A stretch of 58,283 bases of DNA. Origin: Nanobdellota archaeon. GTDB lineage: Archaea; Nanobdellota; Nanobdellia; Parvarchaeales; Parvarchaeaceae. The stretch covers positions 1 through 58,283 of the forward strand of contig JAJYRE010000019.1 in NCBI GenBank assembly GCA_021794235.1, given 5' to 3'. Shown in pieces: positions 19,738-52,629 of the stretch (position 1 is its first letter; each line of letters starts with the position of its first letter). The translations under genes were made by a program, and so were the position numbers. The notes under the pieces were generated by a model. The model made no database searches. It had not been told where the DNA came from and saw only the letters and a program-made list of their open reading frames with translations.

Positions 19738-22700
19738 ATGAAAGGAAAACGTAAAGTTTCGAAGAAAAGGGAAGAGTTTCACCAGCAGTCCGCCCTGGAA
19801 TACCTCATAAGCTGGGGCTGGATACTTATTATAGTTGCTGTATCACTTGCTATACTCTACAGTTTCGGAATATTCAGGGTTGGAGCACCACAGACTATAA
19901 TCAGCGGATTCCAGGGGTTATCCGTTACCAATGCGGAGATAAATTCGAGCATGTTTGTCATAGAGATAACCAACAATTTCGGTTCTCCTGTTAATATAAC
20001 TAACGTATCTGCTCAGATAGGAAGCTCAATATTCGATCATGCAGAGTGTGAACTGTCCATATTAACACAAGGCCGTACAACCTTTTGCAGACTGACGCTG
20101 GAAAATATATCAGGTACTGCCGTAACTTCAAGTGTAAATATTAATTTTGTCCCCTACCGTGCAAGGTTGGAACTTATATCCAACGGTACAGTAACCTCCG
20201 CCCTGATTACGGGTCCACTCGCCATCAATACACAGGTAACATACTTCATAGAGACCGGCCTTCCCGTCGGCAGCAATTTTTCCGTAACTTTCGGCGGTGC
20301 AACTGAATATCAACGTGTTTCCGCGGCAGGAGCAAACATAAGCTTTAACAAGCCATTCGGCACCTACCAATACGATGTCCCGCAGATAAATTATCAGGGG
20401 TGTGTAAGTGCGGCCACGCCATCATCTGGAAGTTCAGAAACAAGTACTGTAAATACCGTACCTTTCCTGTCAAACTGCACAACAACATTTATAGAGACTG
20501 GCCTTCCTTCGAGTCAGCAGTGGCATGTGGTGTACGGAGGGGTAAATTCCAGCGTTGCAAATACAGGTTCCAAAATACTTTTCACGCAGAACAAACTCAC
20601 CAGTGTCACATCCCCATCGGTTGTAGCATACAGCAATAATCTTGAGTGTTCATCTCCTACGAGTAATGTTCAGGAGGGCGCGACAGTAAGTTTGGGTTCA
20701 TGGACATGCACAACCACGTTTACAGAGTCCGGCCTTCCTTCGAGTCAGCAGTGGCACACGATATACGGAGGTACCAGCACAAGTAGCGTGAATACAAACT
20801 CGCCTATAACTTTTACACAGACTGGTGTAACAAACGTATCAAACTTTTCATCTACTGCGTACAGTAATTCTCTTTACTGCAATTCCTACAGTTCTCCGGT
20901 ACTATATCAGGGGGCTTCATACAATTTCGGAGCATGGAACTGTACTACAACTTTTACAGAATCAGGCCTTCTGTCAAATCAGCAATGGACTCTAAACTTT
21001 CTTGGAGCAAACTATACGGACAGCACAAATATCGCCAGTGGAACCCAGTCGGGTCCTATAACCATATTCCAGAGCGATATTTCATCCGTAGACACCACGA
21101 TCTCAACAAAAGCCTACAGCAACAGCCTTGCCTGTAATGAGGGACTGTCGCCGGTTTCGCAGGGCCAGACCCTTAATTTCGGCTCCTGGACATGCACAAC
21201 CACATTTACAGAGTCCGGAGTACCTCTCGGATCCAGCGGAAGCGGCATAAGCGGAACGTTAGGATGGTCAGGACTGCTTAACGGGAACAGTGTAGCCTCT
21301 TCAACATCCTCTTCCACTATAAGCTATGTACAGTCCGGTATAAGCACCATATCTTCACTAACAGCAGGAGCGGATACCAATGGACTTAACTGCGGAAGTG
21401 CGAACACCTATTCAATATACCCAGGAGGATCTGCTTCATTTTCCTCATGGAACTGTATAACATCTTTTTCAGAGTCCGGAGTACCTTTAGGATACTCCGG
21501 CGCGGGTTCCAGTACTACGGTTGGTTGGACTGCAGACTATCCCAGTGGAACGGCGATCAACTCTTCCACATCCAGCAGTTCTCTTACCTACAGAGAAAAC
21601 GGAGTTTCATCCATACTGTCCGCTAATTCGAATGCGGTAGTAAACGGTCTGAGCTGCAGCAGTTCAAACACCAACTCTCTTTACTACGGAGGGTCTACCG
21701 CCTTTTCTTTATGGAGCTGCGTGACAACGTTCGGATCGGGCATACCCTCATCGTACAATTCCTACACTTGGGGAATAAACTATGCTGGTCTTCCACCCAC
21801 TAGCGGAACCGGTGTCGGCAATGCAATATCGATTTCAACCACAGTCGGGACTTCAAACGGTCAATCCGCGACCATAAATAATCAACCAATCGATTCGGGA
21901 AGTCTTAGTGGTATAAGCTGCAGTTATAACGCTACAGGCAACTCGTACATGCAGGGTGGCAGTTTTACGCTTAGCGATAGCTACTGGGACTGTAAGACTA
22001 CATTTTCGGAATCGGGCCTCCCAAGTCCGAGTACATATTCGCCATACTATTGGAATATAACGTTCGGAAGCCAATTCCAGGGCGGGAATACCCCAACATC
22101 AAGCTTTACATTTAACAACATTCCTGCAGCAAGTGCAATAGGCTGGCGTACAGGGGGTACAAATTCACAGCTTGCACTTCAGACACAAGCTCCTTGGGTG
22201 GGTCCGATTAGCGGTACAGACGGCGCTGCATTTGGCGATACAAGCGGAACGCAGTCCATATCATTTACAGCTCCAACGTCAGCTGCGTACTACGGCCTTG
22301 TCGTTGTAATTGGTTCCGGTGTTCATGAGATAACCGCCGGATCCGAAAGCATAACTTCATCAGGGAGTACAAGCTCATGCTCTATCAGTTATATCAACGG
22401 TCCGACCGGAAGCATTTTCTCACCTTACGGTGAAACAGGGGCAGTTATCTGGTGCAACCCCGTTACAAACGGCGCGACTTACACTGTAAGCGTGACTGCA
22501 CACACCTCAGGCGCGTACATAGCAATTTCAGACTACTTTATACCCGAGTTAAACACCGCCCAGTATGATTACTTAAACTACTCCGGACAGGGCGGCCCCA
22601 CCGCAAACTGCGTCTCCGGCGGTACAGTGTGCCAGTATTACGCATACTCCGGAAGCACCATTACACCAGGAGGATTCACGAACACCGTTCAGTTCTGCGC

Positions 22701-23004
22701 CGGGGGCATCGGTGGAAACAGCGGTACCTACGAGACTAGCTTATCGATGTTCGCATTAAGCAGTCCTTATTACACTTACTCGATAGAGTCTGCAAACGGC
22801 AACTACGACGAGGCTATAACGGGACATTACAGCATAGGACCCGGTTCCCAATTGACCTGTTTTGCTAATGATGCGACGGAAAATACTGATACGGGGGAGG
22901 CAGTTGCCATGGTTGCGGCATATCCTCCGGGGTATCTAAGTTCAACTACAAGCGGGAGTTTGTATCCGGGGCAATCGACAACACTCTCATACGGACCGAC
23001 TTAA
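19738..23004 (+). CDS. Giant pilin-like surface protein (class III signal peptide plus about 8 ESGLP-type repeats)
   Basis: KKREEFHQQSALEYLISWGWILIIVAVSLAILYSFGIF followed by repeats such as CTTTFTESGLPSSQQWHTIYGG...YSNSLYCNS... Confidence 0.85.
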   Translation: MKGKRKVSKKREEFHQQSALEYLISWGWILIIVAVSLAILYSFGIFRVGAPQTIISGFQGLSVTNAEINSSMFVIEITNNFGSPVNITNVSAQIGSSIFDHAECELSILTQGRTTFCRLTLENISGTAVTSSVNINFVPYRARLELISNGTVTSALITGPLAINTQVTYFIETGLPVGSNFSVTFGGATEYQRVSAAGANISFNKPFGTYQYDVPQINYQGCVSAATPSSGSSETSTVNTVPFLSNCTTTFIETGLPSSQQWHVVYGGVNSSVANTGSKILFTQNKLTSVTSPSVVAYSNNLECSSPTSNVQEGATVSLGSWTCTTTFTESGLPSSQQWHTIYGGTSTSSVNTNSPITFTQTGVTNVSNFSSTAYSNSLYCNSYSSPVLYQGASYNFGAWNCTTTFTESGLLSNQQWTLNFLGANYTDSTNIASGTQSGPITIFQSDISSVDTTISTKAYSNSLACNEGLSPVSQGQTLNFGSWTCTTTFTESGVPLGSSGSGISGTLGWSGLLNGNSVASSTSSSTISYVQSGISTISSLTAGADTNGLNCGSANTYSIYPGGSASFSSWNCITSFSESGVPLGYSGAGSSTTVGWTADYPSGTAINSSTSSSSLTYRENGVSSILSANSNAVVNGLSCSSSNTNSLYYGGSTAFSLWSCVTTFGSGIPSSYNSYTWGINYAGLPPTSGTGVGNAISISTTVGTSNGQSATINNQPIDSGSLSGISCSYNATGNSYMQGGSFTLSDSYWDCKTTFSESGLPSPSTYSPYYWNITFGSQFQGGNTPTSSFTFNNIPAASAIGWRTGGTNSQLALQTQAPWVGPISGTDGAAFGDTSGTQSISFTAPTSAAYYGLVVVIGSGVHEITAGSESITSSGSTSSCSISYINGPTGSIFSPYGETGAVIWCNPVTNGATYTVSVTAHTSGAYIAISDYFIPELNTAQYDYLNYSGQGGPTANCVSGGTVCQYYAYSGSTITPGGFTNTVQFCAGGIGGNSGTYETSLSMFALSSPYYTYSIESANGNYDEAITGHYSIGPGSQLTCFANDATENTDTGEAVAMVAAYPPGYLSSTTSGSLYPGQSTTLSYGPT

Positions 23005-23006
23005 TT

Positions 23007-24284
23007 ATGAAAACTAAATCAGCGGTAATCATTGCGGTGGCTATAGTATTACTGGTCGGGCTTTTCGCGTGCTATGCTATAGCGTACATGCCTTTCGGAG
23101 GAACTCCGGCCACGCCTCTGCTTACAACTACATTCCTTCAATCCGGTCTTCCGCAGGGAAGTTCCTGGTCTATTACATTCAACAACGTTACCAAAATTTC
23201 TTCATCTAATTCAATAACATTCAAAACCATAAACGGAAGTTTCAAATTTAACATGTATGCGAATGAGATAAACGTCACTCCCATCAAAAACATAAGTGTC
23301 GGAGTCAGTCCGATGTGGATGACTTACTACCAGAACCTTGATGAGCTTCTTGTAACCAACGATGGCAGCAATACGCTCAGTGTTATCAACACAACAACGG
23401 ATGCGGTAGTTAGGACCGTTAAGGTTGGCTTATTCCCGGCAATACCGATTCTGGACAGTACACTTGGAGTAATATATGTAACCAACATGCATTCGGACAG
23501 CGTCACAGTAATCAATGCATCTAGTTTTAGTGTCATCAAAAATTTATCTACAGGATCCCTTCCCCTTGGCATCGCCCTGGACCCATCGAACGGATATCTT
23601 TATATCGGAAATTCCGGTTCAGGAACCGTCAGTGTAATAGACAGCGTAACCGGCGCAAATGTAACGACAATCAATGTAGGCGGTGCACCAAGAGGCGTTA
23701 CTTACAACCCGGCGAACGGTCATATCTACGTTGCCAATTACGACGAGAACAAAGTAAACGTGATAAACCCCGCATTAAATTCATTTTACAACATAACAGT
23801 CGGCACTAACCCTATGTGGGTCACATACGATCCATATAATCAGTACATCTATGTCGACGATTACGGGTCCAGCAATCTAATGTACATCTCCAACAATAGC
23901 GTCTTGGGTACGATACCTACAGGAATAGATCCGGTAGGTGTGGTATACGCAGGAAATCACCTGATTATGGAGATAAACTACGGATCCGGAACTGTCGGAT
24001 TGATAAATGACACAACAAACAGCGTTATGGTAAATCTGTATGTAAGCCTCACACCTGAAAAGGTTATCGGTAACTACACCAACCAAAACGGTACCTTCTC
24101 ATTCGTCACATACAAGAAGAACCTACCTATGTGGGCGATATACAACAATAATACGGGCCTGTTGTACATGACTTACTTCAGGACTAACTTCGTAAGGACA
24201 TTCAACATGTCTGTACTCCCGGATATGTATATCGGGATTTTATCTGCAGGCTCAAGCAGACAGATAAATTTTAGAAAGCCTTAA
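23007..24284 (+). CDS. Membrane-anchored YVTN-type beta-propeller protein with one ESGLP unit
   Basis: N-terminal TM; TTTFLQSGLPQGSSWSITFNN; repeated YLYIGNSGSGTVSVIDSVTGANVTTINVGGAPRGVTYNPANGHIYVANYDENKVNVI. Confidence 0.88.
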   Translation: MKTKSAVIIAVAIVLLVGLFACYAIAYMPFGGTPATPLLTTTFLQSGLPQGSSWSITFNNVTKISSSNSITFKTINGSFKFNMYANEINVTPIKNISVGVSPMWMTYYQNLDELLVTNDGSNTLSVINTTTDAVVRTVKVGLFPAIPILDSTLGVIYVTNMHSDSVTVINASSFSVIKNLSTGSLPLGIALDPSNGYLYIGNSGSGTVSVIDSVTGANVTTINVGGAPRGVTYNPANGHIYVANYDENKVNVINPALNSFYNITVGTNPMWVTYDPYNQYIYVDDYGSSNLMYISNNSVLGTIPTGIDPVGVVYAGNHLIMEINYGSGTVGLINDTTNSVMVNLYVSLTPEKVIGNYTNQNGTFSFVTYKKNLPMWAIYNNNTGLLYMTYFRTNFVRTFNMSVLPDMYIGILSAGSSRQINFRKP

Positions 24285-24365
24285 GAATCAGGGTGTTCTA
24301 CCCACAGAACTTTCTTCTGTTTGTGCCCTATATAAACTTTTTAAGCGAAAATATGGTATATTATT

Positions 24366-27197
24366 ATGCAAATCATTCCATCTTCCCATAATTCCAAAAA
24401 AGGCAGGTCTTCCCAATCGGCACTGGAATACCTGATAAGCTGGGGCTGGATACTTATTATAGTTGCTGTATCACTTGCTATACTGTACGGCCTTGGAGTA
24501 TTCAACATTAATAGTCCTAGCACTCTGATTACAGGATTTCAGGGGGTATTGGTAACAGAATCTGCTATTAATTCCAGTATGTTTGTTATCCAGGTATCCA
24601 ACAATTTTGGGACCACAGTTAATCTTACAAACATATCAATACACATCGGCACCCAGACATTCTCTGATTTTTCCTGTGAGATATCCATCTTATCACAGAG
24701 TGGGCAAACACTCTGCAGAGTTAATAATATAACTGCAAATGGGGGCAGCGTTTCCTCCAGCGTCAGAATAGATTTTTTACCCTACAAGTCCCCGCTTGTG
24801 CTGACATCGAATGGAACCATAGTATCCTCACTAATACACGGGAAATTGGCCATAAATACGCAGATAACGTATTTCGTAGAAAACGGGTTACCTATAGGCA
24901 GCAACTTTTCCGCTACTTTCGGCGGGACAACCGGACATAGTGAAGTACTCGCATCCGGGGCAAACGTCAGTTTTGAAAAACCATTTGGAATATACAACTA
25001 TTACATCTCTGTCGTAACATACAAAGGTTGTGTAAGTGATCCGACACCTTCTTCCGGAAGCTCGCGGACTAGTATTGTGAATCAAATATACTTTTCATCA
25101 ACGTGCACAACTACCTTTTCAGAAACCGGGCTCCCGTCCGGCCAGCAATGGCATGTTAAATACGGCGGTTTAAACTCTTCTTCCGGAAACACTGGTTCTC
25201 CCGTATCATTTACACAGACAAAAATAAACCAAGTCTCTTCCCCAGCGGTTGTTGCGTACAGCAATAATCTGACATGCAGTTCCACTTCTCAGAATGTACA
25301 GCAGGGCGGATCGGCCACCCTCGGTTCATGGACATGCACAACATATCTTAATGAGGACGGGCTCCCGTCCGGCCAGCAATGGCATATGCAGTTCGATGGG
25401 ATTAATTCGATCGCTTCCAATACCGGCTCCCTAGCTACGGTAAGTCAATCGGGAATTTCGACAGTATCCGCATACTCCTCTCAGGCTTACGCTAATAATC
25501 TAAATTGTTATTCCTCGACCCAAAATGCGCTTCAGGGTAGTTCAAATGTAAGTCTCGGCAGTTGGACATGTATAACAACCTTCTCACAGTCCGGCCTGCC
25601 AAGTGGATCCTGGTATGCAACATTTGATGGCACTTTGCCGACAGTCAGTACATCGTCGGGAACGACAGTTACGCAGAGCGGTATAAGCACCGTATCAGAA
25701 TATGTTGCAGAAGGGTACCCTACCGGACTTACATGCAACTCATACAATACCCCTTCGCTATACCAGGGTTCTACGTACACATTCAACTCGTGGGACTGCA
25801 ATACCACATTTACCGAATATGGTCTTCCGTCGAGCGAGCAGTGGTATGCAGTGTTTGGCGGAACAAATTCAAACACCGTAGCTACGGGCTCTACAGCTAC
25901 CGTAACGCAATCCAACATAGCTACGATTTCTACTCTTTCCGCCACTGCTTACAGTAACACTCTTGACTGCGCATCTAATTCTAAAAACGTAGAGCAAGGC
26001 ACGGCATCCCAAACTCAACTCGGCACGTGGTCTTGCGTTACAGACTTCCAGCAGATAGGTATGAATTACGGATCCGGTACCTACTATGTTAACTTTAATG
26101 GAACCGACACATCATCTGTAGCGTATAACACCGTTACTAGCGCTGTATATATGAACAACATGAATGTGGTAAACGCCCTGCCGGCAACAGCCTACAGCAA
26201 TAACTACAACTGTTATACGCCCACAAGTAACGTTTACCCCGGATCGCCGCCTGCACCATACGGCCAGTTCCATGGCTATGTCGTCATGACGAATTGGAGG
26301 TGTATCACTACCTTTAATAGCGGATTGCCCTCCCAGTACAGTGGCCTGATCTGGCAAGTTTCAGACGGCGGGAACTCTGCATACGGCTCAGCTACCAGTC
26401 CACTCCAGTTAACATTCACATCCTCATCTTTTCCCGCGACTTATTCAGTATCAGTAACCGGTTCTTCAACCCAAGCATCCAGCGCCGGAAAAGCCTTTGA
26501 CTGTTCAACCTCGGCATCCGTGCCATCCGGTCAGACATACTCCTTTAGTTCAAGTGATTGGACTTGCTATGATAAGTTTTATGAAACGGGATTACCAACG
26601 GGTTACACATGGAGTCTAACATTCGGGGGCGTCACAGGATCCGCATCTTCTGGTAGTTCTATAACACTCACAACAAATGCTGGTTACTTTGGAGATTCAG
26701 CGAAGGCGCCAGGACTGTCGTGCTCGCCAGCAACCAGCTTTACGACTCCGGCAGGCACTTCAGGATTGAATTCAAGTTTTGGTGAAAGCGGTATAGATCA
26801 ATGGGACTGCACAAATTACCTATATTTGACATCCGGGTCCCCTTTCCCCTCATCAACTTACACGGAAACTGCCACTAACAATTTCGGCTTTTCCGGCGAC
26901 TCATGTTCTACGTCATACACATTGAATTGGCAGAATAATAGGACTACTCTGCCCAACGGCGATGCGGGTTTGATATTCCAATCATGTCCTATCTACACCT
27001 CAAATACATATTCATGGAGCATCTGTGGCAGCGGAGGAACCACAAGCGGATGTGCGACTACGATTTTAGGCACCTGTGGCGACGCAGGGCTATTTTCAAG
27101 ATACGAGTGGACTCCCAACGTATCAAGTGCTAGCGGGGAGCCTTTGGGAACAAGTGATTTAATCGGTTTCTCGGTAAGTACGGGAGGGTGTACTTAA
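24366..27197 (+). CDS. Giant pilin-like surface protein, paralog of 19738..23004
   Basis: SSQSALEYLISWGWILIIVAVSLAILYGLGVF; same head and ESGLP-type repeats. Confidence 0.85.
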   Translation: MQIIPSSHNSKKGRSSQSALEYLISWGWILIIVAVSLAILYGLGVFNINSPSTLITGFQGVLVTESAINSSMFVIQVSNNFGTTVNLTNISIHIGTQTFSDFSCEISILSQSGQTLCRVNNITANGGSVSSSVRIDFLPYKSPLVLTSNGTIVSSLIHGKLAINTQITYFVENGLPIGSNFSATFGGTTGHSEVLASGANVSFEKPFGIYNYYISVVTYKGCVSDPTPSSGSSRTSIVNQIYFSSTCTTTFSETGLPSGQQWHVKYGGLNSSSGNTGSPVSFTQTKINQVSSPAVVAYSNNLTCSSTSQNVQQGGSATLGSWTCTTYLNEDGLPSGQQWHMQFDGINSIASNTGSLATVSQSGISTVSAYSSQAYANNLNCYSSTQNALQGSSNVSLGSWTCITTFSQSGLPSGSWYATFDGTLPTVSTSSGTTVTQSGISTVSEYVAEGYPTGLTCNSYNTPSLYQGSTYTFNSWDCNTTFTEYGLPSSEQWYAVFGGTNSNTVATGSTATVTQSNIATISTLSATAYSNTLDCASNSKNVEQGTASQTQLGTWSCVTDFQQIGMNYGSGTYYVNFNGTDTSSVAYNTVTSAVYMNNMNVVNALPATAYSNNYNCYTPTSNVYPGSPPAPYGQFHGYVVMTNWRCITTFNSGLPSQYSGLIWQVSDGGNSAYGSATSPLQLTFTSSSFPATYSVSVTGSSTQASSAGKAFDCSTSASVPSGQTYSFSSSDWTCYDKFYETGLPTGYTWSLTFGGVTGSASSGSSITLTTNAGYFGDSAKAPGLSCSPATSFTTPAGTSGLNSSFGESGIDQWDCTNYLYLTSGSPFPSSTYTETATNNFGFSGDSCSTSYTLNWQNNRTTLPNGDAGLIFQSCPIYTSNTYSWSICGSGGTTSGCATTILGTCGDAGLFSRYEWTPNVSSASGEPLGTSDLIGFSVSTGGCT

Positions 27198-27221
27198 AAA
27201 TGATAGACTATAAATACTGAA

Positions 27222-27833: not shown

Positions 27834-27925
27834 GGTTAATACCAGGATATTTTGGCTTGCTATCCAACGAATCCCAAAAGCAAGAGCTTTAAAATATAAA
27901 TTCCATTTTCGAGAGTTACGGTTAA

Positions 27926-29486: not shown

Positions 29487-29642
29487 ATATTATTACTGGG
29501 ATATTCCTATATAAACCTTTTACCATTAAGAAATAACTAATTTAGTGTATATTATGTCTTTCCGGTCTCTTTACGTTCTCCCAGTACGTCCGATTTTGTT
29601 GTCCGATTAAAACTATAAATATACCAAATTTATCAATATTCT

Positions 29643-30941: not shown

Positions 30942-31009
30942 GTAGATTACACCGGATCAAGAAATTTTCTGTTTTAACCTTTATATAGTGGTTCTAATCA
31001 TCTAATAAC

Positions 31010-33045: not shown

Positions 33046-33051
33046 GAGTTT

Positions 33052-44600: not shown

Positions 44601-47600
44601 AAATAAATACAGTACTTCAGATTTAATAGATTTTATAGGATCTTCTCAAAACCTTTCATTTACAATACCTAGTGTAGTAACGGGTAGTGCTTACATATAC
44701 GTACCAAATATCAGCAGTGGATTTGGTCAATCCACTGAAAATACGAGTATCTCCTTCACCCGTGAGAACGCACTTACACCTGCAGCGGTAACATCATTTA
44801 TACCAATAAATATAACTAATTCTCAATCAACCGCAACTACTGCACCCTTCCAGCAGATGGTCAATTTATCTTATTCTACTTACAGTGCTTATGCAAATCT
44901 CTCAAGCGGCCACCAGTTCCAAAACGTTGAATTTTTCAATTTGACCTCCGGTACACTAATTGACTCCTGGCTGGAAAACTACACTAAGAATTATGCACTA
45001 TTCTGGATAAAGCTACCTAATGGCATACCATCTAAGCGTACACTTGATGATATGGCCGTCGGTTTTGCTCAAAAGAATGTTAGCTTATTCAATAAAATTA
45101 CAACAGGAGAAGCCCCGCAGCTGTCTTTGACAGGCAATTATACTCTCGGTCTCCCTGGCGGATCGTACGCGGAACAGACTAATGGATTCAAATGGATGAA
45201 TAATGCTACGCAGCCGTTTACACTATCGATATGGGTCAATCCCGCTTCTCCAAACGGTGTTATCATTGATGAGGCTAGTCCGACCGCCAGCTGGCATGAT
45301 AGCTGGGTAGAACTTGTAAACGGCAATATTGATATGAAAGTATGGAATTTAGGTTGCGTAAGCCTAGGGTCCATACCGCTTGATCAATGGTCAAACATAG
45401 TAATATCAGGTTCCTTGTCTGGAAGTACGATAAATTATTCTGGTTATGTAAATGGCGTTTATAAGGGTTCTGGGTCAGGTTCCAGGAGCGTGCCCGGTAG
45501 CACTAATTTAATGTACTATCCACTCGGTATATCCGACAGTACCAACTGCGGTTCTGCAGCATCTTTCGTTGGGAGTATGGAAAATTATCAGATATACAAC
45601 AAGTCATTAACTACGACTGCCGTTACAAAACTGTATTCCGAGGGAATATATGGTGCGCCTGTTAACTCATACGGCGTGTCTGCGTGGTGGCCCCTTAATG
45701 GCAGCGGTAATAATCTTATACAGAATAACTCCATAAAGCTATATGGTACTTCATCCTACCACAGACAGGATGGATACGCGAAATATGATAACGGCGGTGA
45801 TGTATTTACTAACTACTTTGACTTCAATGGAACCGCACTTCCGAACGGATGGACAAATCATAATGCCGGTTTGCTTTATCCAAGCGATGGATTATTCTGG
45901 GGGCAGGGTATCTCCGGATACAGCACAACAACTTTCAGCCCTCCGTATATAGCTGAGATGTATGTAAAGTCCACTTCATATTCCGGCGGTGACGATGGGG
46001 TTCTACTTATGGGTCCGAGTATAGGAAGTTCTAATTATTGGGTCGGATTTGGCGACGGAGGTTCAACAAATTCTCCTGTATACGGATACGGTGCAAACAA
46101 CGCATGGTTATCTAGCAACCTTCAAGCGCTCAGCTTAAATTTCCCGTATATATTTGGGTATGAGGCATTTAACACCAGCAAATCTCAATATTATTTGAAT
46201 TATGCACTGAAGGCGAGTGATGCAATAGCTGCAAATTCACAATATCTTGAATTATGGTCCAACACTGGCACCTCCTCAGTCTATAAAACTTACTGGATAC
46301 GTTTCAGACAGGTGCCTCCTAACAACGTTATGCCTGCGGTTTCTACCGGACAAAATTATACTGTACCTATCACTCTTGCTCTAAACGGCATTCGGAACGA
46401 GAATAGAACTTTATCATACGGGAATCAGAGCAATTTCACCGCCGTATTATCCAACACGTCCGAATACGTAAGACTTTGGAATAATATAAGTGGCGTGATA
46501 ACACCCCTTACCGGTTTTAGCAGGTCAAGATCTACGTATCTTGCAAATTTATCCGCAGGAACTATAACCGTTACTGCGGGAACAAATTCCAGCGGCATAA
46601 GAAACATCACCTATACTGAGACTATATCCAAAGCAACTCCGTTCTTAGCACTTTCAGTTTCACCGTCCATAAACTATACGTACAACGCAACCAATATAAC
46701 AGTGAAAGCAAAGGTTTCTACAATAAATAACCAGCTGAGTGCAGGACTTTACATAAACGGTAAGTTTAACCAAACCATAACATCCTTGAAAACAATAAAT
46801 CTTGGCAATTCACCCGGCGTTTATTCGGTAATTCTGAATATAAGTGGTAATGCGAATTATTCAAGCAGTTCAGTAAAAATTACAAGAGAGATCTACCCTG
46901 CTTCATCGCTCGTCAATTACTATATTCCTCTTAACATAACAAATAGCCAGCTTGCGGCGACACCGGCTCCTTTCCAGCAATTGATCAACTTGTCATATGC
47001 ACAGTACAAGGCATACATAAATTTGAGCAGCGACCACCAGTTCCAAAACGTTGAATTTTTCAATTTGACCTCCGGTACACTAATTGACTCCTGGCTGGAA
47101 AACTACACTAAGAATTATGCGCTATTCTGGATAAAGCTACCTAATGGCATACCCGCCTCAACAGAACTGAGCGACGTGGCAGTAGGTTTTGCCCCAAACA
47201 CCACCAACCTGTTCAATCAGAATACTGTGGGGGAAGCCCCGCAGCTTTCACCATCCTACGGACAGTATGATAACGGTGCGGGTATATTCAGTTATTATTC
47301 CAGATTCGGCGATATGTCTGTACTGCCACCGGGATGGAATGAGAACGGTTCGCCTACAACCTCTTTCGGCACTGACTACCTTAAATTGACTGAAACGAAT
47401 ACAGGTTCTTGGCAAGGCATATCCAAGCTCTTTCCTGCCGGCGTCAACAAAACCGCAGGAGTCTTTGAAATTTATGGGAATATATATAAATCTGGTACAG
47501 AGTCCAATTACCAGGTACTTGCTGGCGTAGGGGCAAGTATGCCTGCGGTGGCTGCTGCCGTGGGTGGATACGACGATGATACATCACAACATCCGTATTG

Positions 47601-49788
47601 GTTTACATCCTTACTATCGAATGTTAGACAAGGTGGTGCGAGCGGATCCGCACAGTTGTTAAATAATTCATATGTGTCTGGCATAGCTTACAACGGCTTA
47701 GGAACTACAAAGTCCAATGGTGTGGGGTACTTGAATTATCAGGGTCAGGGTACAGTTACTTCCACAACATCAGAAAACGTGGCTTACATAAGTGTAGGAT
47801 TATCTGGCTATGGATTGGAAAGCGTATATCTGTACTGGCTGAGATTGCGTGCCTATCCGCCGAATGGATCTATGCCTTCCGTTAGCTTCGGGCCCATCGT
47901 ACCGAAGAACATAACAAATTATGTAATGCTCACCATATCCAATAGTCAGAATAAAGCTACATCTTCTCCTTTCCAGCAGATGGTCAATGTAAGCAACAAA
48001 ATCTACGGTAAGATAGCTAATTCGAACTTCCAGAACGTGGAATTTTTCTACAAGAATGGAACGATAATTCCTTCGTGGCTTGAGAGCTATAAATATCAAA
48101 ATAGCGCGCTTTACTGGCTGAGGCTCGGTTCGATTCCTTCAAACGGCACCCAGATTGCATACTTAGGATTCGCATCAAACAGTACAGTTCTGTTCAATGC
48201 CAATACAGTCGGAGAATCCCCGCAGCTCTCCTCAACTTATGGCCAATATGACAACGGTGCAAATGTTTTCGTTGCTTATGATAATTTCACAAGATTAAAC
48301 TCGAGTATCGGATGGATAAACGCTATAGGAACCGTACCAAGCTACACTGTGAATGATGGTCTTACTCTACACTCTACATCTACAAATACATGGGAGGGGC
48401 TTGTTCTAAACACTACCTACAACGCGACAAAGTACGTTATGGATTCGTACGCCCACTTTAGCTCATTATCAGGAGTTGGTGAAGAAATTGACATGCAGAC
48501 CAACCAAAATAGCTTCTCTTCTTCTAGTACGCATCACATAGGCTTGACTGATGAAAATACCGTTTACGCTTCTCAGAATTATAACGGTTCCAGTAGCATA
48601 GTAAACACGCCTATAAACTCACTGAATTTCGGTGTTTGGTCTATATATGCCAATAACACCTATTCAAAGTTGTCTTTCAATTATACAAGTACAACAAATA
48701 ACGGTGTTGACTTGCCAGTCTTAAGTTCACTATACCCTAGTATGGAGAGCGCTCGTTCTAACATTAGCATACTTATTAGGTACATTCGTATACGAAACCA
48801 ACCCCCCAATGGAGTAATGCCGACTGTAAAATTTTCAACCCTAAAGTTGCCCAGTGGAATTACGAATTATGCTAAAATATCTATAGACAATGCGCAGCCA
48901 GTTTCTGAATCAAATTACCAACAGATGATTAATCTTTCAAGCAACACATTCAAGGGCTACGCAGCTTCAAACCTCCAGAACGTCGAGTTCTTCTACTCGA
49001 ATGGCACAGTAATACCTTCATGGCTGGAGAACTACACCTATTCAAAGAACGCGTTGTACTGGATAAAAATGAACATTAATGCCGATTCAATTGAAAACAT
49101 ATACGTGGGTTTTGCGTCAAACAGCACAAATCTGTTTAATTCAAACACGGTGGGCGAGGCTCCGCAGCTGTCTTCCACCTACGGACAGTATGACAACGGC
49201 GCAGACGTATTCCCTATTCTGTATCAGAACTTTGCCGGGACTTCGGTCCCGACCGGATGGACATCCACCGGCTCTATCACAATAAACAACGGCGTCACAT
49301 CCGCGTACTCATCTTTACTCACTACGAGCGCCTCCAGCTATGGGGATAACTCCAGCCAGATACTGGATTTTTACGGAAAGTTTCCAACACCAAGCCAAGT
49401 GGACAACCCTATGGCCGGATACGTATCAAGCAGCGGCTTTAGCAATAACAACAATCCGGGGTCTGGTTTTGATCTCAATACCAACATAGGCTCTGGTTTG
49501 GCTATAATCGTTCACACTTCCAGCTGCAATCCGTATATCAGCACTTCTTTCCCGCTAAACACAAATACGGTTTTCTCCATCCACACGGTCTCCGGCAGTT
49601 CAACGCAGTTTTCCTACAATTATGGTGCGGTCGACAGTTTGGCATGCGGTCAGACAACCCAAATAACAGTCGGTATTTCTAATGATGGGTCTACAGGACA
49701 GACGATTGGTCCATTTTACTGGTTTAGGATAAGGGTAAATCCTCCGAATGGAGTAATGCCTTCAATGATCTTTGGAGAGGTACAGTGA
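35650..49788 (+). CDS. 4712-aa giant modular cell-surface protein
   Basis: N-terminal signal anchor, 26 tandem ESGLP/C-x24-26-C units, six DUF2341-like modules, LamG-like and lectin-like modules; one uninterrupted frame. Confidence 0.92.
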   Translation: MAKRSRHSTKKHYNVHFTAFLIVLVIMFIALFFLATQSNLLNVNVLGLVTQTIHSIISPPQNISTSPPSNTTNTTLITPRFTLFYEKGLPSSTLWSISSGTNIQYSNVNLINFSSTGALVSFTVNKVIINGCVFTPVPFSAATASGSTNQIVFSSSCTTTFTELGLPNDTAWGMSYSNLTRNSSSDSIGFDTGYGTFNFNVFQSSNSSCAYAPYPLSGSLQAGSSKTIVFLSLCANSTNSGVVFAETGLPTGYNWSVTYDNTTLSSVNPFIKFSTVSGHIYPFFNTSSINRNGCVFTPSPQSGGAIPGETVAINFTSECNTSFQETGLPFGLNWKVSYNGLTESSNSTSLNFNTSYSTSPATVNNVIVGNCTYIPSLNYSGSIASGSAVSVLFKSSCVSTFTEKNLPSGLSWTVNYDNKVVTSYSNKIQVITPNITTNFTIETTVNGGCIYTPTPNNGNLSSGSGQSVVFAQACHTVFTSTGLPSGISWAVEYDGSTRDGGYNSSIEFPYYANTTFGFNVSTIRLGNCTYTPSPQNGTIQGGALQNIVFSAACSTSFYESGLPSGDSWAVTYDNNTLSSTSTSVVFNGINGSYKYNLSDVPISGGCYYAPSPSSGTLTAGSNISILYSNVCTTTFIDPGLPQGANWTVTFAGATKHTLQQNVSFVLSPGKYYYQISQTSFGGCTYAPNETSGSTSVGQDVHVTFNLTSCDTVFSESGLPSGSSWQVKYDGSSVDSQSSSISFNNLPGNYSFSISPIVLGTCTFAPNESSGVIGAGSTPAIHFNSSCYTDFYENGLPSKSLWTVNYSDKNTSSVGTSMSISTPYSTYPYSVYNISAGPDCYYIPQPSTGTDSAGTSVTITYVRECVSTFKETGLYAGTPWSVVYNGINASSRSSSISILGVPGNYSYKIVNAYGYGCEFVPNETSSSLVSGNNVSLSFNATSCTTTLTEKGLPSGQSWNATFLAFNSTNSNTVSFVTGAGNYSLLVPHLNLSNCIFEASPPSVIRAGTSLNLQFHATCYSNITESGLPNGTKWTLNLTPSYNSLGYQTYPDQVYSTQKSYIEWISVNSTRNFVIDTIPINQKCHYEPQPSSGSVTAGHNMHISFYNSCITNFYEKGLPSGSKWAVDYNGINATSTSTIISFTTAVGVYSFRVYGVIFGGCYYLPNMTSGTINSSSTIGIGFVKKYCTTLFTESGLPSGYKWNVTYNSTVLSSTSSSISFNTTPSSSALSYVVSPTHLSSGNCYVNITSGNGTAVPGSTVSLQYINSCETTFTEAGLPSGDTWTVSYGGFTNSSSTSSIIIYALPGAHTFTPSIVGAGSGCFYQPSPVSGSLSAGSSSSITYSLECNTTFTELGLPGSARWSVDFGGSNHSATSSSIVFTTSTGSNSFTVPSVNFASCSYLPSPSSGTSVAGGNTTVSFTENTCNTTFYEKGLPTKTTWTIKYDGIQVSPSNNNITLTTPAGIFVLDAYKVKISGCVYSPSTYSSDIAAGSQFTIDFTASCSTNFTESGLPPSTYWFVDYNGTSVSSNTSMVSIPSQNGIYSYSVAYVGNSSCYYSPSPSSGNLVAGSALGVTYTGGCTTTFYENGLPLNTNWTVSYNGSSLHSTARSMQFVTGPGNHSYSISNITVDNCLYVGVPSSGNASAGSSITVVFNQTECSTVFKARGLASGLNWTINFGDSNYTQSSSSVTVTTRPGPVNLTAYSITSNNCTFNPSPSSAKIAAGSSIYINYTSSCITSFVEKGLPSGITWSAKYDGITNYSSTSGISITSIYGNFTFNIPRIQVSANCYLTPNPDTGHLVSGGAVSVNFSTYCLSQFSESGLPTGLKWSVTYDSITNSSNSADMLFNVLSGNYSYSIKAIKDGNCFYTPNSSSGYVNAGGYTSVKFTESACTSYFSESGLPSGTFWNVTFDSLINTSTKPIIQLNTSNGQYPFSIPSQIVAGCTYVPVPASGDIGAGSNTSITFNRDYCISHFNEIGLPSGFDWNVTLGPFNEVSNTSAISFNTTYSTYSYSTATIKYGQCEFIPNSTSGSTAAGSTVNIAFQSICKNYFFESGLPNGYYWHVSYYNTTKLPTTSEVEFTTAYGKFNLSILPTVVSNCGFTPNVTSRSLVSGSNLSVTFVNSSCQEPVVIPISFYNQNNVTLPNGYQQKLVFDSFNYSKYENANLSNIMFTYANGTVVPSWLESGNSNTSNDTVYWFKLAGIPSERGLTIHMILNQSFKKYAVDFNNRTTGEAQQLAPSYVNYSDIQNVMKSGLIYQIYYDSGSTSSGVSTAQESALYNASISSSTTISVGGQSFISSTPLFVVPGSTSSQNVDGTTRNYVINNLQGGYSGGAGFPNPPVANYGNAFMIKEIGFIALNRPIQFSVDIDDGGALGISNSTGNAYSWLGSSSVNQANILNEWVSESATVHSSSPVKTGDYGLEYSYINQGGPGYWSLWSNASLGYYYPLVLVDNLSAGTLVNTSLYTTTVTETGLPAGYNWTASYDGINKSTTSGSISFSTVSGSHNLYIRTLSNASSTPNCTSTYTPNITHSTETAGTTTQIKFFSSEFCTTLFLEKGLIGSPASNSFWSVAFDGKNISSAIPKVSVPKDIESYKILKIKNLQNVSTVPPLQQMVNVSNNIYSGLAASNFQNVEFFYINGTVIPSWLENYSYGKYSVYWLDLGTIPANSSISIYMGFAPNSTNVLNNLNTSISSQLGPYPQPSTGSQLPARLSENYTSCGNFFDMEEYPNGGGPNPSPNNMICSWVGGNVNIYMAGGSGGYSGLGITGVSNGKNYYSHFFNTPYCLSSYGSVYLPPGQYKLTTSRGNGGGSCGPGGFILTAPTIQISYPNNIMPTALFIYPTVAFGDGAINGAITISDTPYSNYTAAASTNLSCSIAPASVTAGSTFLFTGWNCTSTFVTLNIPSGYHFSVTFDNVTRSGRTGSPLNLSTISYTGLYNYNASTPSIGYNTSGKTYAGVTTQLSEWSVTKQFIETGLPVGATWYVNYNGTNKYSTSDLIDFIGSSQNLSFTIPSVVTGSAYIYVPNISSGFGQSTENTSISFTRENALTPAAVTSFIPINITNSQSTATTAPFQQMVNLSYSTYSAYANLSSGHQFQNVEFFNLTSGTLIDSWLENYTKNYALFWIKLPNGIPSKRTLDDMAVGFAQKNVSLFNKITTGEAPQLSLTGNYTLGLPGGSYAEQTNGFKWMNNATQPFTLSIWVNPASPNGVIIDEASPTASWHDSWVELVNGNIDMKVWNLGCVSLGSIPLDQWSNIVISGSLSGSTINYSGYVNGVYKGSGSGSRSVPGSTNLMYYPLGISDSTNCGSAASFVGSMENYQIYNKSLTTTAVTKLYSEGIYGAPVNSYGVSAWWPLNGSGNNLIQNNSIKLYGTSSYHRQDGYAKYDNGGDVFTNYFDFNGTALPNGWTNHNAGLLYPSDGLFWGQGISGYSTTTFSPPYIAEMYVKSTSYSGGDDGVLLMGPSIGSSNYWVGFGDGGSTNSPVYGYGANNAWLSSNLQALSLNFPYIFGYEAFNTSKSQYYLNYALKASDAIAANSQYLELWSNTGTSSVYKTYWIRFRQVPPNNVMPAVSTGQNYTVPITLALNGIRNENRTLSYGNQSNFTAVLSNTSEYVRLWNNISGVITPLTGFSRSRSTYLANLSAGTITVTAGTNSSGIRNITYTETISKATPFLALSVSPSINYTYNATNITVKAKVSTINNQLSAGLYINGKFNQTITSLKTINLGNSPGVYSVILNISGNANYSSSSVKITREIYPASSLVNYYIPLNITNSQLAATPAPFQQLINLSYAQYKAYINLSSDHQFQNVEFFNLTSGTLIDSWLENYTKNYALFWIKLPNGIPASTELSDVAVGFAPNTTNLFNQNTVGEAPQLSPSYGQYDNGAGIFSYYSRFGDMSVLPPGWNENGSPTTSFGTDYLKLTETNTGSWQGISKLFPAGVNKTAGVFEIYGNIYKSGTESNYQVLAGVGASMPAVAAAVGGYDDDTSQHPYWFTSLLSNVRQGGASGSAQLLNNSYVSGIAYNGLGTTKSNGVGYLNYQGQGTVTSTTSENVAYISVGLSGYGLESVYLYWLRLRAYPPNGSMPSVSFGPIVPKNITNYVMLTISNSQNKATSSPFQQMVNVSNKIYGKIANSNFQNVEFFYKNGTIIPSWLESYKYQNSALYWLRLGSIPSNGTQIAYLGFASNSTVLFNANTVGESPQLSSTYGQYDNGANVFVAYDNFTRLNSSIGWINAIGTVPSYTVNDGLTLHSTSTNTWEGLVLNTTYNATKYVMDSYAHFSSLSGVGEEIDMQTNQNSFSSSSTHHIGLTDENTVYASQNYNGSSSIVNTPINSLNFGVWSIYANNTYSKLSFNYTSTTNNGVDLPVLSSLYPSMESARSNISILIRYIRIRNQPPNGVMPTVKFSTLKLPSGITNYAKISIDNAQPVSESNYQQMINLSSNTFKGYAASNLQNVEFFYSNGTVIPSWLENYTYSKNALYWIKMNINADSIENIYVGFASNSTNLFNSNTVGEAPQLSSTYGQYDNGADVFPILYQNFAGTSVPTGWTSTGSITINNGVTSAYSSLLTTSASSYGDNSSQILDFYGKFPTPSQVDNPMAGYVSSSGFSNNNNPGSGFDLNTNIGSGLAIIVHTSSCNPYISTSFPLNTNTVFSIHTVSGSSTQFSYNYGAVDSLACGQTTQITVGISNDGSTGQTIGPFYWFRIRVNPPNGVMPSMIFGEVQ
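35888..42009 (+). repeat. 26 tandem ESGLP repeats (about 78 aa each) inside the giant gene
   Basis: Each unit: F-x-E-x-GLP-x-G-x-x-W ... C-x-x-x-P-x-P-x-SG-x3-AG-x4-I-x-F-x3-C; 26 heads and 26 Cys pairs counted by eye. Confidence 0.88.
42013..42350 (+). other. DUF2341-like module 1
   Basis: LPNGYQQKLVFDSFNYSKYENANLSNIMFTYANGTVVPSWLESG...TTGEAQQLAPSY. Confidence 0.75.
43411..43730 (+). other. DUF2341-like module 2
   Basis: PPLQQMVNVSNNIYSGLAASNFQNVEFFYINGTVIPSWLENYSYGKYSVYWLDLGTIPANSSISIYMGFAP. Confidence 0.75.
43789..44100 (+). other. 'CGNF' domain shared with the 51361..52629 product
   Basis: CGNFFDMEEYP...CSWVGGNVNIYMAGGSGGYSGLGITG...LPPGQYKLTTSRGNGGGSCG. Confidence 0.65.
44791..45130 (+). 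other. DUF2341-like module 3
   Basis: TAPFQQMVNLSYSTYSAYANLSSGHQFQNVEFFNLTSGTLIDSWLENYTKNYALFWIKLPNGIP. Confidence 0.75.
45130..45660 (+). other. LamG/concanavalin-like domain
   Basis: QPFTLSIWVNPASPNGVIIDEAS...LDQWSNIVISGSLSGSTINYSGYVNGVYKGSGSGS...SMENYQIYNKSLTTTAVTKLYSEG. Confidence 0.65.
46912..47250 (+). other. DUF2341-like module 4
   Basis: NSQLAATPAPFQQLINLSYAQYKAYINLSSDHQFQNVEFFNLTSGTLIDSWLENYTKNYALFWIKLPNGIP. Confidence 0.75.
47911..48230 (+). other. DUF2341-like module 5
   Basis: SSPFQQMVNVSNKIYGKIANSNFQNVEFFYKNGTIIPSWLESYKYQNSALYWLRLG. Confidence 0.75.
48853..49176 (+). other. DUF2341-like module 6
   Basis: SNYQQMINLSSNTFKGYAASNLQNVEFFYSNGTVIPSWLENYTYSKNALYWIKM. Confidence 0.75.
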
Positions 49789-49956
49789 GCATCAAGTAAT
49801 GCACAAGACAGTCAGTAGCATGATGAATGCCGCCTGTAAAAATCTACAGCATACAACTAAATTTATTGCTTTCATCCTATGTTCTGAAAATTGCCCCCCA
49901 CGTATTCGATTTGATATTAATAAACTATTAATATAACTACTTTTTAATAATGATAA

Positions 49957-51222
49957 ATGTTTATAGAATTATTATCAGCTTTCGCGACCACTGCTTTCAC
50001 CGGGATCAATGCAGTCTGGGCTGGAAGCAATGTTTACAATTTCTACCCGTTGCTGAAGGTCCGTAAACTGGAGAAATCAGAGCATGTCGGAGTGGAAGAG
50101 AAACCAAAAGTGTCCGTATTGCTGCCAGCTTACAGGGAGGAGAAGGTCCTTCTGAACACCGTCAAAAGGATAGAAAGCAACAGATACAGCAATCTGGAAC
50201 TTATACTGATGACAGAAAAAGACGATTTCAAAACCGACAGGATGGCAGAATATCTTCATAGAAAATACAAAAATGTCATTCATGTACCGGTAGAGGACAA
50301 CGGAACGGCAAGAGGGAAGCCCAGAGCCCTCAACCAGGGCCTGAGCAAGGCGACCGGGGAGATCATCGGTGTTCTGGATGCGGAAGACTATGTATCCGAC
50401 GATCTCTTTGATACAGTCGCCTCATCGATAAAAGGCGAGGGATACGATGCGGTGCAGGGCCAGCTCAAGCTAAAGTCGGAAAAAGAGTCGTGGCTGGACA
50501 AGCAGTTCCGTGCTGAGTACGATTTCTTCTTCAGCGAGTACCTGCCTAGGTTATCAAAGCTGGATTATATACTGCCGTTTGGTGGCACCACAAACTTCTT
50601 CAGAAAAGAGCTTGTGGATGAGCTAGGTGGATGGAAAGAAGGCAATCTGACGGAAGATTATGAGCTGGCCGTGAGAGCAAGCATGAACTCGGCGAATACC
50701 AGCAAAAAATACAAGATAGGCATGATAGACGTCGTGACTACAGAGCAGACAACTCCGAATCTCAAGTCCTGGATGAAGCAGAGGACCAGATGGCAGCAGG
50801 GAAAACTACAGACAACAGTTGAGTATTCAAAGCGAAAATACGACCCCAAAAGCAAGGCAAAGATGTATATGGCAGGGTTAGGCGCGTTTTTCGGACCTAT
50901 AAACTTTACGGGTATCGGGATGAGTGCGTTATTTTACCTCGACCACCTGCCGGTTCCGCAGGTTATCAAACCGCTCGCATATTTCAATCTCTCATCCGCG
51001 GCTTTCTACTGCTATATACAGGGAAGATCCTACGAGAAGATTGCAAAGAAGGAAAATAGAAGCCACCCTTATCTAAAAGGGTTTCTGATCGGGGTTACAA
51101 CACCCGTCTACTGGGTGCTCCAGTGGGCCGCAAGCACAAGGGCCGTTTTCAGGGAACTGAAAAACATGAAGAACTGGGAGAAAACCGAACACACCCCTAT
51201 CGATTACTCAAAAAAGAACTAG
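49957..51222 (+). CDS. Membrane glycosyltransferase family 2 (processive/cellulose-synthase-like)
   Basis: VSVLLPAYREEKVLLNTVKRI, DAED, TEDYELAVRA, QRTRWQQGK, C-terminal TMs. Confidence 0.88.
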   Translation: MFIELLSAFATTAFTGINAVWAGSNVYNFYPLLKVRKLEKSEHVGVEEKPKVSVLLPAYREEKVLLNTVKRIESNRYSNLELILMTEKDDFKTDRMAEYLHRKYKNVIHVPVEDNGTARGKPRALNQGLSKATGEIIGVLDAEDYVSDDLFDTVASSIKGEGYDAVQGQLKLKSEKESWLDKQFRAEYDFFFSEYLPRLSKLDYILPFGGTTNFFRKELVDELGGWKEGNLTEDYELAVRASMNSANTSKKYKIGMIDVVTTEQTTPNLKSWMKQRTRWQQGKLQTTVEYSKRKYDPKSKAKMYMAGLGAFFGPINFTGIGMSALFYLDHLPVPQVIKPLAYFNLSSAAFYCYIQGRSYEKIAKKENRSHPYLKGFLIGVTTPVYWVLQWAASTRAVFRELKNMKNWEKTEHTPIDYSKKN

Positions 51223-51360
51223 TTTTATCCGATGACTTTTACCCTGACAGTCTGGATAAGGCCAAGCCTTTCAGGAGGCTGGCTCAACAAGCCGATACCA
51301 CGTTATAAGGGCTTGAGAACCATAAAAAACTTTAAATATAACAAGTTTAATTCATATAAA

Positions 51361-52629
51361 ATGAGCAATGGGGGCGACAATACTTCTATAAACCCTGCCG
51401 ATTCGGCCGAATCTGGTAAATTGCCGCCGGAATCTAAAATTAATACACAACTTATTGTATTGATAGGTATAATCATAGCGGCCGTGGCAATCCTGTATGT
51501 CCTATACCAGTTTAATGTAATCGCCGGGATAAGTTTTCTAGGCAACGCTCCGGTAACGACGTTTTCATCCGCCAATAGCTCATCACAGGCGACGTTTGAC
51601 GCGTCTAATATCTTTAAATCCAGCAGTAACTTCAATATAAGCTATAATTACTCTTCAACTGCGTACTCTTCTGTATTAGGCGTCAATCACAGTACCACTA
51701 CCTCTCAAAGTGCTTACATAAGCAAATACGGTGAATATTTTAAAAATGTAATAAATAATTCAGGAATCGTTAACACTACTGTCTATAACGGATCAGGCCT
51801 AACAGAATGCCTGAGTTTTCTAGGACTGCCAACCTGCACTTTTACCCCAGTTTCATCCGATGCTATAAATAAGTCAGGTATTTTTTCGCAGCTTTTCAAT
51901 AATAGCGCGACATCCAACTTAATGGGCTCTGTAAAAAATTCCAGTTTTAAAAATTTAGGTGAGAAAACCTACAACGGCAATAGGTGTACAATGTTTGGGC
52001 TGTCAACGGTCCTTAAAAACTACTCCGTGTCTTTCGGCATCTCATCCGCCATAAGCGGATACATAGACGAAAACATCTGCATCTCCGATGAGTTTGGCGT
52101 AATATTATACGGAAATATAGGTTATGAAGCCAAGGTAGTGACAAACTCGAGTTTTATCGGAACTGCAGTAACGGGCGGAGTCGTAGATATAACGTCAAAG
52201 TTAGGTCCTGCCCCCACCCAGTCTGAAGTCCTTAGTCTGCCTAATAGATCCTCATCCGGTTTCGGTACCGGCTCATATAACGGAACTATACCCGGCATAC
52301 CATCCAATCCGAATACCGTTGACGTTAACGGTACATCCTGCGGTAACTTTAGCACGTCAACATACCCTTCCAGTCATATTGAGGGAACCTGCAACTGGAC
52401 GGGTGGAATCATAAATATAAGCTACGCTGGAGGGACTGCAGGCTATGCTTCTGTGACGTTGACGGGAGAGAACAGTAAGGTATACTATTCCAACAGCACT
52501 ACACTGTGGTGCTCATCCGATCCTGCGTATTCCATCATAAATCTTCCAGCTCAGCAGTATACTGTCAGGCTGGGTGCAGGACGCGGCGGTGGAGACTGCG
52601 GTGACTCGTACGTTAAACTCAGCGGATAG
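51361..52629 (+). CDS. Membrane-anchored extracellular protein with C-terminal CGNF domain
   Basis: ORF 51232..52629; ATG at 51361 follows aactttaaatataa; TM INTQLIVLIGIIIAAVAILYVLYQF; C-term CGNFSTSTYPSSHIEGTCNWTGGIINISYAGG...GRGGGDCG. Confidence 0.75.
   Translation: MSNGGDNTSINPADSAESGKLPPESKINTQLIVLIGIIIAAVAILYVLYQFNVIAGISFLGNAPVTTFSSANSSSQATFDASNIFKSSSNFNISYNYSSTAYSSVLGVNHSTTTSQSAYISKYGEYFKNVINNSGIVNTTVYNGSGLTECLSFLGLPTCTFTPVSSDAINKSGIFSQLFNNSATSNLMGSVKNSSFKNLGEKTYNGNRCTMFGLSTVLKNYSVSFGISSAISGYIDENICISDEFGVILYGNIGYEAKVVTNSSFIGTAVTGGVVDITSKLGPAPTQSEVLSLPNRSSSGFGTGSYNGTIPGIPSNPNTVDVNGTSCGNFSTSTYPSSHIEGTCNWTGGIINISYAGGTAGYASVTLTGENSKVYYSNSTTLWCSSDPAYSIINLPAQQYTVRLGAGRGGGDCGDSYVKLSG

What the first reader, a model, noticed from the sequence alone, without database searches (positions are those of the whole stretch)
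19738..52629. Dispersed modular surface apparatus built from one repeat family (ESGLP) in four different architectures
The same 'F-x-E-S-G-L-P-x-G-x-x-W ... C ... C' unit occurs after class III pilin signal peptides (19738, 24366), beside a YVTN propeller (23007), and 26x plus extra copies in the 4712-aa protein (35650). A DUF4382-like protein, a processive GT2 and a CGNF-domain partner lie nearby. Established knowledge: ESGLP-like repeats, YVTN and DUF2341 occur in archaeal surface proteins. Inference: together they form a coordinated adhesion or cell-cell contact system, possibly for host or biofilm attachment.
Basis: partly seen in the sequence, partly recalled or inferred. Interest (0 to 1): 0.85.

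Follow-up and report, generated by a model that had tools for sequence, protein, structure and literature searches.

The report
Disulfide-locked stalk domains of acid-mine archaea
A tiny acid-mine archaeon of a host-dependent lineage builds long cell-surface stalks from one small protein domain that it shares with the larger Thermoplasma-type archaea of such waters, but in its own lineage the domain carries a pair of cysteines and is anchored at the opposite end, and in one giant protein exactly 26 copies in the same order are kept in every related species with a complete copy.

Summary
A ~78-aa ESGLP unit occurs 26 times in tandem (plus a few later copies) in the 4712-aa protein, about 5-8 times after each of two class III pilin heads, and once inside the YVTN protein; the genome has 69 units on eight contigs. 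The organism belongs to a Parvarchaeota-like DPANN genus of acid mine drainage. Units occur in 31 of 32 genomes of its family, about 2 of 248 others of its class, and 70 of 200 Thermoplasmata-class genomes. They are predicted beta-sandwich stalk domains (pLDDT 96). New findings: (1) only the Parvarchaeota form has a Cys pair (90/125 units; Thermoplasmata 0/178; Micrarchaeota 0/11), best explained as pairing within one domain; (2) Parvarchaeota anchor these proteins N-terminally, Thermoplasmata usually C-terminally; (3) the giant's array is exactly 26 units in all six species with a complete array, colinear one-to-one where compared; (4) the only prepilin peptidase gene detected lies beside an ESGLP pilin in 8 of 13 congeners, and one such gene run ends in VKOR, a disulfide-forming enzyme; (5) pilin head, units and propeller are fused in one protein in five congeners. 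The GT2 link is refuted. Adhesion to hosts or biofilm is likely but unproven.

The parts
19738..23004 (+). Class III pilin-headed ESGLP protein 1 (1088 aa): pilin head (residues 1-170, QSALEYLISWGW) and about 5-8 ESGLP units
23007..24284 (+). N-terminal TM + one ESGLP unit (about 23124-23276) + YVTN beta-propeller (425 aa)
24366..27197 (+). Class III pilin-headed ESGLP protein 2 (943 aa)
27222..27833 (+). Small N-TM protein (203 aa) that also follows an ESGLP pilin in congener G011 (51% id)
35650..49788 (+). Giant N-anchored protein (4712 aa); one hydrophobic segment, at residues 13-31
35887..42039 (+). Array of exactly 26 tandem ESGLP domains, 52 Cys (2 per domain)
42130..49785 (+). Distal part: six DUF2341 copies found by Pfam (strongest at 48025-48189, the others weak on their own), two clear and two weak further ESGLP units (clear: about 43030-43275 and 44542-44763), CGNF domain, lectin-like module
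43762..44049 (+). CGNF domain (Cys-rich) in the giant, shared with the ORF at 51232
45205..45624 (+). Laminin_G_3 / concanavalin A-like lectin domain in the giant
   Evidence: E 8.8e-13
51232..52629 (+). N-TM protein (465 aa) with a C-terminal CGNF domain
49957..51222 (+). GT2 glycosyltransferase: neighbour only, not linked to the giant in relatives (listed because the finding names it)

Best explanation
The ESGLP unit is a ~78-residue all-beta stalk domain that forms rigid rods when repeated in tandem. In this Parvarchaeota-like genus most domains carry two cysteines that most likely form a disulfide inside the domain (middle Cys to the Cys that ends the same domain), so the rods are covalently stapled outside the cell. 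VKOR, present in nearly every congener and in one genome encoded directly behind an ESGLP pilin, is the likely source of the disulfides. The rods are anchored at the N-terminus in two ways. Class III (type IV) pilin heads, cut by the prepilin peptidase, put rods with or without YVTN propellers on pilus-type assemblies. A signal-anchor giant carries a fixed 26-domain rod and presents DUF2341, lectin-like and CGNF modules on its distal part. The most likely job is attachment to neighbours: Thermoplasmata hosts, or biofilm matrix. Shown by sequence: homology, domain content, counts, Cys pattern, anchors, gene neighbourhoods. Predicted: fold. Inferred: disulfide formation, rod geometry, assembly, binding target.
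For: Units real and genome-wide. AF2 of three units: mean pLDDT 96.1, all beta, with one long strand running across each domain boundary. Best PDB fold matches are Gram-positive surface proteins and pilins, E 7e-9 to 1e-4. Cys pairing: of 201 interior units 198 have both the middle and the end Cys, 3 neither, 0 one (phi 1.0), against phi 0.15 for the preceding Cys; first and last units agree (phi 0.76 and 0.68). Cys pair in 90/125 Parvarchaeota, 0/178 Thermoplasmata and 0/11 Micrarchaeota units. VKOR in 14/15 congeners against 2/9 other-family genomes; in G002 the order is prepilin peptidase, ESGLP pilin, small protein, ESGLP pilin, VKOR on one strand, with VKOR starting at the pilin stop. The only Peptidase_A24 match is next to an ESGLP pilin in 8 of 13 congeners, own genome included; T2SSF platform genes present. 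Head-unit-propeller fusions in G004, G005, G008, G013, G037. N-terminal TM in 48/50 and C-terminal TM in 1/45 Parvarchaeota unit proteins. Array of 26 in six species, order 1:1 in the four relatives compared, own units only about 34% alike, no DNA-level repeat. Lectin-like module.
Against: No expression, localisation or binding data. Foldseek TM-scores are low (0.2-0.35), so the fold class is approximate. The pilin-head model was poor (pLDDT 55). Some Parvarchaeota units (24/125) lack both Cys. VKOR's main copy sits among housekeeping genes; VKOR next to an ESGLP pilin was seen in one genome only. YVTN propellers and lectin-like folds can also be enzymes or S-layer parts.
Confidence: 0.6

Rival explanations
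1. The giant and the ESGLP proteins are structural cell-envelope (S-layer-like) proteins that protect an acidophile cell; the array is a fixed-length spacer or pillar, not an adhesin.
For: Fixed length and order of 26 domains suits a structural spacer. Many N-glycosylation sequons, 197 in the giant. An acidophilic micrarchaeon has an S-layer (PMC8975820), and surface-layer candidates of the ARMAN-2-related Mia14 include YVTN proteins (PMC5498576).
Against: The giant was not found in many congeners' assemblies while shorter ESGLP proteins persist. Class III pilin heads linked to prepilin peptidase do not suit an S-layer. The lectin-like distal module suggests binding.
Confidence: 0.2
2. The proteins are host-interaction factors that specifically engage the homologous ESGLP proteins of Thermoplasmata hosts (like-to-like contact between symbiont and host).
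For: The domain is shared by Parvarchaeota, Micrarchaeum and 70/200 Thermoplasmata-class genomes, and is almost absent from the rest of the DPANN class. Propeller architectures occur on both sides.
Against: Shared habitat, common descent or old transfer explains the pattern equally well. The unit tree puts DPANN units together apart from Thermoplasmata, not interleaved. No binding data.
Confidence: 0.12
3. Repeat-rich decoration with no dedicated role: copies expand and drift, and the clustering of modules is a by-product of domain shuffling.
For: Unit numbers per genome vary from 0 to 89 among congeners, and many different architectures exist.
Against: Exactly 26 colinear orthologous units with conserved odd-length units 13 and 15, near-perfect Cys co-retention and peptidase linkage in 8 genomes point to selection.
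Confidence: 0.08

Closest known systems
ESGLP-bearing secreted proteins of Thermoplasmata (often with YVTN/NHL propellers, PKD, Sortilin/BNR)
   Same: Homologous unit with the same FTESGLPSGxxWxV core; association with beta-propellers
   Different: Thermoplasmata units lack the Cys pair (0/178 with both) and their proteins usually end in a C-terminal TM (36/44); no class III pilin motif in those examined
Archaeal type IV pilins with class III signal peptides
   Same: Q-S-A-L-E-Y-L motif and hydrophobic segment; prepilin peptidase and T2SSF in the genome, peptidase adjacent to an ESGLP pilin paralogue
   Different: 900-1700-aa proteins with stalk arrays and propellers instead of short pilins such as the 152-aa frame in G025 of another family; 5-31 head copies per congener genome
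Gram-positive fibrillar adhesins and sortase pilins built of Cna-type Ig-like stalk domains with intramolecular isopeptide bonds (surveyed in PMC12617251)
   Same: Fold similarity by Foldseek; tandem beta-sandwich stalk with an internal covalent lock (inferred to be a disulfide here) and a candidate binding module
   Different: No conserved Lys for an isopeptide bond; a Cys pair instead; N-terminal anchor; no sequence similarity found
RTX-type giant adhesins with long extender arrays (e.g. MpAFP, PMC4083281)
   Same: Very long single-chain array of Ig-like domains holding out distal binding modules
   Different: MpAFP has roughly 120 identical repeats (abstract); here 26 domains only about 34% alike, fixed in number and order across species
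Surface-layer candidates of the ARMAN-2-related archaeon Mia14 (PMC5498576)
   Same: Acidophile DPANN organism with YVTN propeller and PKD surface proteins proposed for cell-cell contact
   Different: ESGLP units, the Cys pair and pilin fusions are not mentioned in the passages read

Membership tests
ESGLP surface-repeat family (as in Thermoplasmata) | Homologous ~70-78-aa unit with F-x-E-S-G-L-P-x-G-x-x-W core | tested here: met
ESGLP surface-repeat family (as in Thermoplasmata) | Cys-free unit on a C-terminally anchored secreted protein (typical Thermoplasmata form) | tested here: not met
   Cys pair in 90/125; C-terminal TM in 1/27 and 1/45 Parvarchaeota proteins
Archaeal type IV pilin (class III signal peptide) | Class III motif with hydrophobic segment near the N-terminus | tested here: met
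Archaeal type IV pilin (class III signal peptide) | Prepilin peptidase and assembly platform in the genome, linked to the pilin gene | tested here: met
   (linkage seen for the paralogue on own contig C4, not for the two window pilins)
Archaeal type IV pilin (class III signal peptide) | Assembly into a filament | not testable with these tools
   needs microscopy or biochemistry
Cna-type isopeptide stalk domain | Intramolecular Lys-Asn/Asp isopeptide bond | tested here: not met
   most frequent Lys column 6/23
Cna-type isopeptide stalk domain | Cna-like beta-sandwich fold | tested here: inconclusive
   significant Foldseek E-values, low TM-scores
Fibrillar adhesin | Anchor + tandem stalk + candidate adhesive domain in one polypeptide | tested here: met
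   (giant: N-TM, 26 domains, Laminin_G_3)
Fibrillar adhesin | Demonstrated binding | not testable with these tools
   none
YVTN beta-propeller proteins | YVTN repeats above the TIGR02276 cut-off | tested here: met
   (151.9 bits, cut-off 27.85)
PgaC/IcaA-type processive GT2 (for 49957) | Equivalog score cut-off TIGR03937 | tested here: not met
   (88.6 against 422.3 bits)
S-layer protein | Paracrystalline lattice, high abundance | not testable with these tools
   none

The most novel reading that the evidence does not exclude
A host-dependent DPANN lineage re-engineered a surface domain shared with its Thermoplasmata neighbours: it moved the domain onto its own type IV pilins and an N-anchored giant, added a disulfide staple with VKOR as the oxidising partner, and holds a 26-domain rod at fixed length as a molecular spacer that sets the contact distance to the host.
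Probability: 0.25. Interest if true: 0.82.

Novelty: new variant of a known kind. Interest (0 to 1): 0.62.

Why it matters
How Parvarchaeota and other small acidophilic DPANN archaea hold on to their hosts is open; pili-like connections were seen by microscopy, but I found no molecule named for them in the papers read. This work gives named genes, a domain boundary, a Cys pair that can be tested in one gel, and a predicted rod of fixed domain number that can be looked for in tomograms. It also suggests a disulfide doing the job that isopeptide bonds do in Gram-positive pili, and shows a surface domain shared between DPANN archaea and the Thermoplasmata group that contains known hosts of acidophilic DPANN archaea.

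Tried and rejected
A genome-contig scan with the whole giant found no relative, and a first alignment was too diverse to search with. Giant-GT2 synteny was tested and rejected. Conserved pilin-YVTN-pilin gene order was not found; fusions were. The pilin-head structure model (pLDDT 55) was too poor to use. Pfam and PDB sequence searches of the unit gave only chance-level matches; I judge the ribosomal L24e match spurious. Isopeptide bond rejected. Disulfide between neighbouring domains (preceding Cys with middle Cys) disfavoured. Recent transfer between Thermoplasmata and this genus is not supported, since the unit tree keeps DPANN units apart; the tree is short (78 columns) and poorly resolved. 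Micrarchaeota Cys pairs: those seen came from contig L164, whose units are identical to contig L168 of the Parvarchaeota-like group (misbinning), so they were set apart. The literature search for ESGLP gave one irrelevant paper, and ESGLPSG none. The A_DKE S-layer paper is not held.
Full report
Observation. An HMM made from the giant's own units finds 26 tandem copies at 35650-49788, two further clear and two weak copies, about 5-8 in each pilin-headed ORF (19738, 24366) and one inside the YVTN ORF (23007); reversed ORFs give none. The own genome (714,732 bases in 25 contigs, 78% complete) has 69 units on eight contigs. The window is therefore one part of a genome-wide family.

Organism. The published lineage Ca. 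Parvarchaeales was first found in acid mine drainage and is described as host-reliant (PMC10134863). Host dependence of this particular genome is inferred.

Distribution. In the own class 33 of 280 genomes match: 27 of 28 of the own genus, all 4 of the own family outside the genus, and 2 weak matches among about 248 others. In the class of Thermoplasmatales archaeon E-plasma 70 of 200 genomes match. Candidatus Micrarchaeum A_DKE also has units. Within the DPANN genomes searched the domain is thus nearly confined to acidophile lineages. The unit tree separates DPANN units from Thermoplasmata units and does not reject one DPANN clade (p-AU 0.94), but has only 78 columns. I read this as an old sharing whose direction is unknown.

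Structure. AF2 on three tandem units with 27 rows gives mean pLDDT 96.1, all beta, with a single long strand running from the end of one domain into the next. The nearest solved folds are the B. anthracis TIE protein and Gram-positive pilins and adhesins (E 7e-9 to 1e-4, TM 0.2-0.35); phage tail and baseplate proteins appear in the viral library. No sequence relatives were found in Pfam or the PDB. The units lack a conserved Lys, so an isopeptide bond of the Cna type is not supported.

Cysteines. The giant's array holds exactly 52 Cys for 26 domains; the five relatives with complete arrays have 50. In 201 interior units of this family the middle Cys and the domain-ending Cys are both present in 198, both absent in 3, and never one alone, while the preceding Cys is only weakly linked (phi 0.15). 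First and last units of arrays, which separate the two hypotheses, agree with pairing inside the domain. The pair is in 90 of 125 units from named Parvarchaeota/Nanoarchaeota contigs, in 0 of 178 Thermoplasmata units and in 0 of 11 Micrarchaeota units. VKOR, from general knowledge an enzyme that makes disulfides in exported proteins, is in 14 of 15 congeners tested and 2 of 9 genomes of other families. In G002 a second VKOR copy begins at the stop codon of an ESGLP pilin, at the end of a run of genes that starts with the prepilin peptidase. That arrangement was seen in one genome only.

Anchors. Parvarchaeota unit proteins have an N-terminal hydrophobic segment (48 of 50) and almost never a C-terminal one (1 of 45); Thermoplasmata ones usually have a C-terminal TM (36 of 44). 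In the genus the N-terminal anchor is often a class III pilin head. Heads occur in every congener searched (5 to 31 copies), while other families of the class mostly have one to a few copies or none. The only detected Peptidase_A24 gene lies next to, and on the same strand as, an ESGLP pilin in the own genome (contig C4) and in G002, G003, G005, G009, G010, G011 and G014, that is 8 of the 13 congeners where it was found. T2SSF platform genes are present. So the pilin heads are very probably real substrates of the pilus system; filament formation is not shown.

Architecture. Head, units and YVTN propeller are one polypeptide in G004, G005, G008, G013 and G037, and adjacent ORFs in G010. The pilin neighbourhood is partly conserved: the 203-aa ORF in G011, the 27926/28581 ORFs in G018, and 28581 in G015. 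The giant's distal part holds DUF2341 copies, a Laminin_G_3 domain and a CGNF domain shared with the ORF at 51232. GT2 homologues at 53-55% identity lie on other contigs than the giant in G014 and G002.

Fixed array. Complete giant arrays from G002, G003, G014, G018, G169 and the own genome all have 26 units in the first tandem run with nearly identical spacing, including the long unit 13 and the 81-residue unit 15; G005 is cut by the contig end at unit 22 with the same spacing. In G002, G003, G014 and G018 reciprocal best matches are colinear (Spearman 1.0, 24-26 pairs), and nearly all of these units are closer to their orthologue than to any paralogue. Own units are only about 34% alike, and no tandem repeat is detectable in DNA. 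The array is old and held at a constant number. Selection for length or for position-specific surfaces is the natural reading.

Mechanism and verdict. The best-supported account is a family of extracellular, N-anchored, disulfide-locked beta-sandwich stalks that hold propellers or lectin-like modules away from the cell, in part on type IV pilins. Attachment to hosts or biofilm is the likely job, and is inferred. The pieces (archaeal pilins, YVTN, Ig-like stalks) are known kinds; the combination, the lineage-specific Cys pair with VKOR, the reversed anchoring and the fixed 26-domain rod are, to my knowledge and in the papers searched, not described.

Noticed in passing
L241 (G002:C25) 181-11094: On one strand: prepilin peptidase, ESGLP pilin (11 units), 212-aa ORF, ESGLP pilin (8 units), VKOR starting at the pilin stop codon.
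   Followed up: yes
L230, L243-L250, L052, L196: A conserved run of two to four single-TM proteins of about 300-345 aa, a diphthine-synthase-like gene on the opposite strand and the prepilin peptidase is shared by most congeners; the single-TM proteins may be minor pilins.
   Followed up: partly
G010:C18, G014:C8, G002:C10, G018:C8, G021:C15, G006:C14: A second giant family of about 2800-3050 aa with 3-6 ESGLP units coexists with the 26-unit giant in G002, G014 and G018.
   Followed up: partly
G004:C15 (L042): A 4021-aa protein with ESGLP units interspersed with YVTN propeller stretches and no pilin head seen in the part read.
   Followed up: no
L164 (JAKACK010000026.1): A contig labelled Micrarchaeota carries units identical to contig L168 of the Parvarchaeota-like group; it looks misbinned.
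   Followed up: yes
L126, L138, L158, L169, L177: MAGs titled 'bacterium' (DX1.bin10, clean3188) carry ESGLP units of the Thermoplasmata type; the genome of L138 (G047) falls in the Thermoplasmata class search.
   Followed up: partly
window 5149-6605 and 9116-9733; G014:C5, G018:C19: Small ORFs and a superoxide dismutase-like gene near the giant in G014 and G018 lie about 26-30 kb from it in the window, so the giant's locus has been rearranged.
   Followed up: no
window 34775-35557: A TauE/SafE sulfite exporter-like permease (PF01925, E 2.4e-27) directly upstream of the giant.
   Followed up: no
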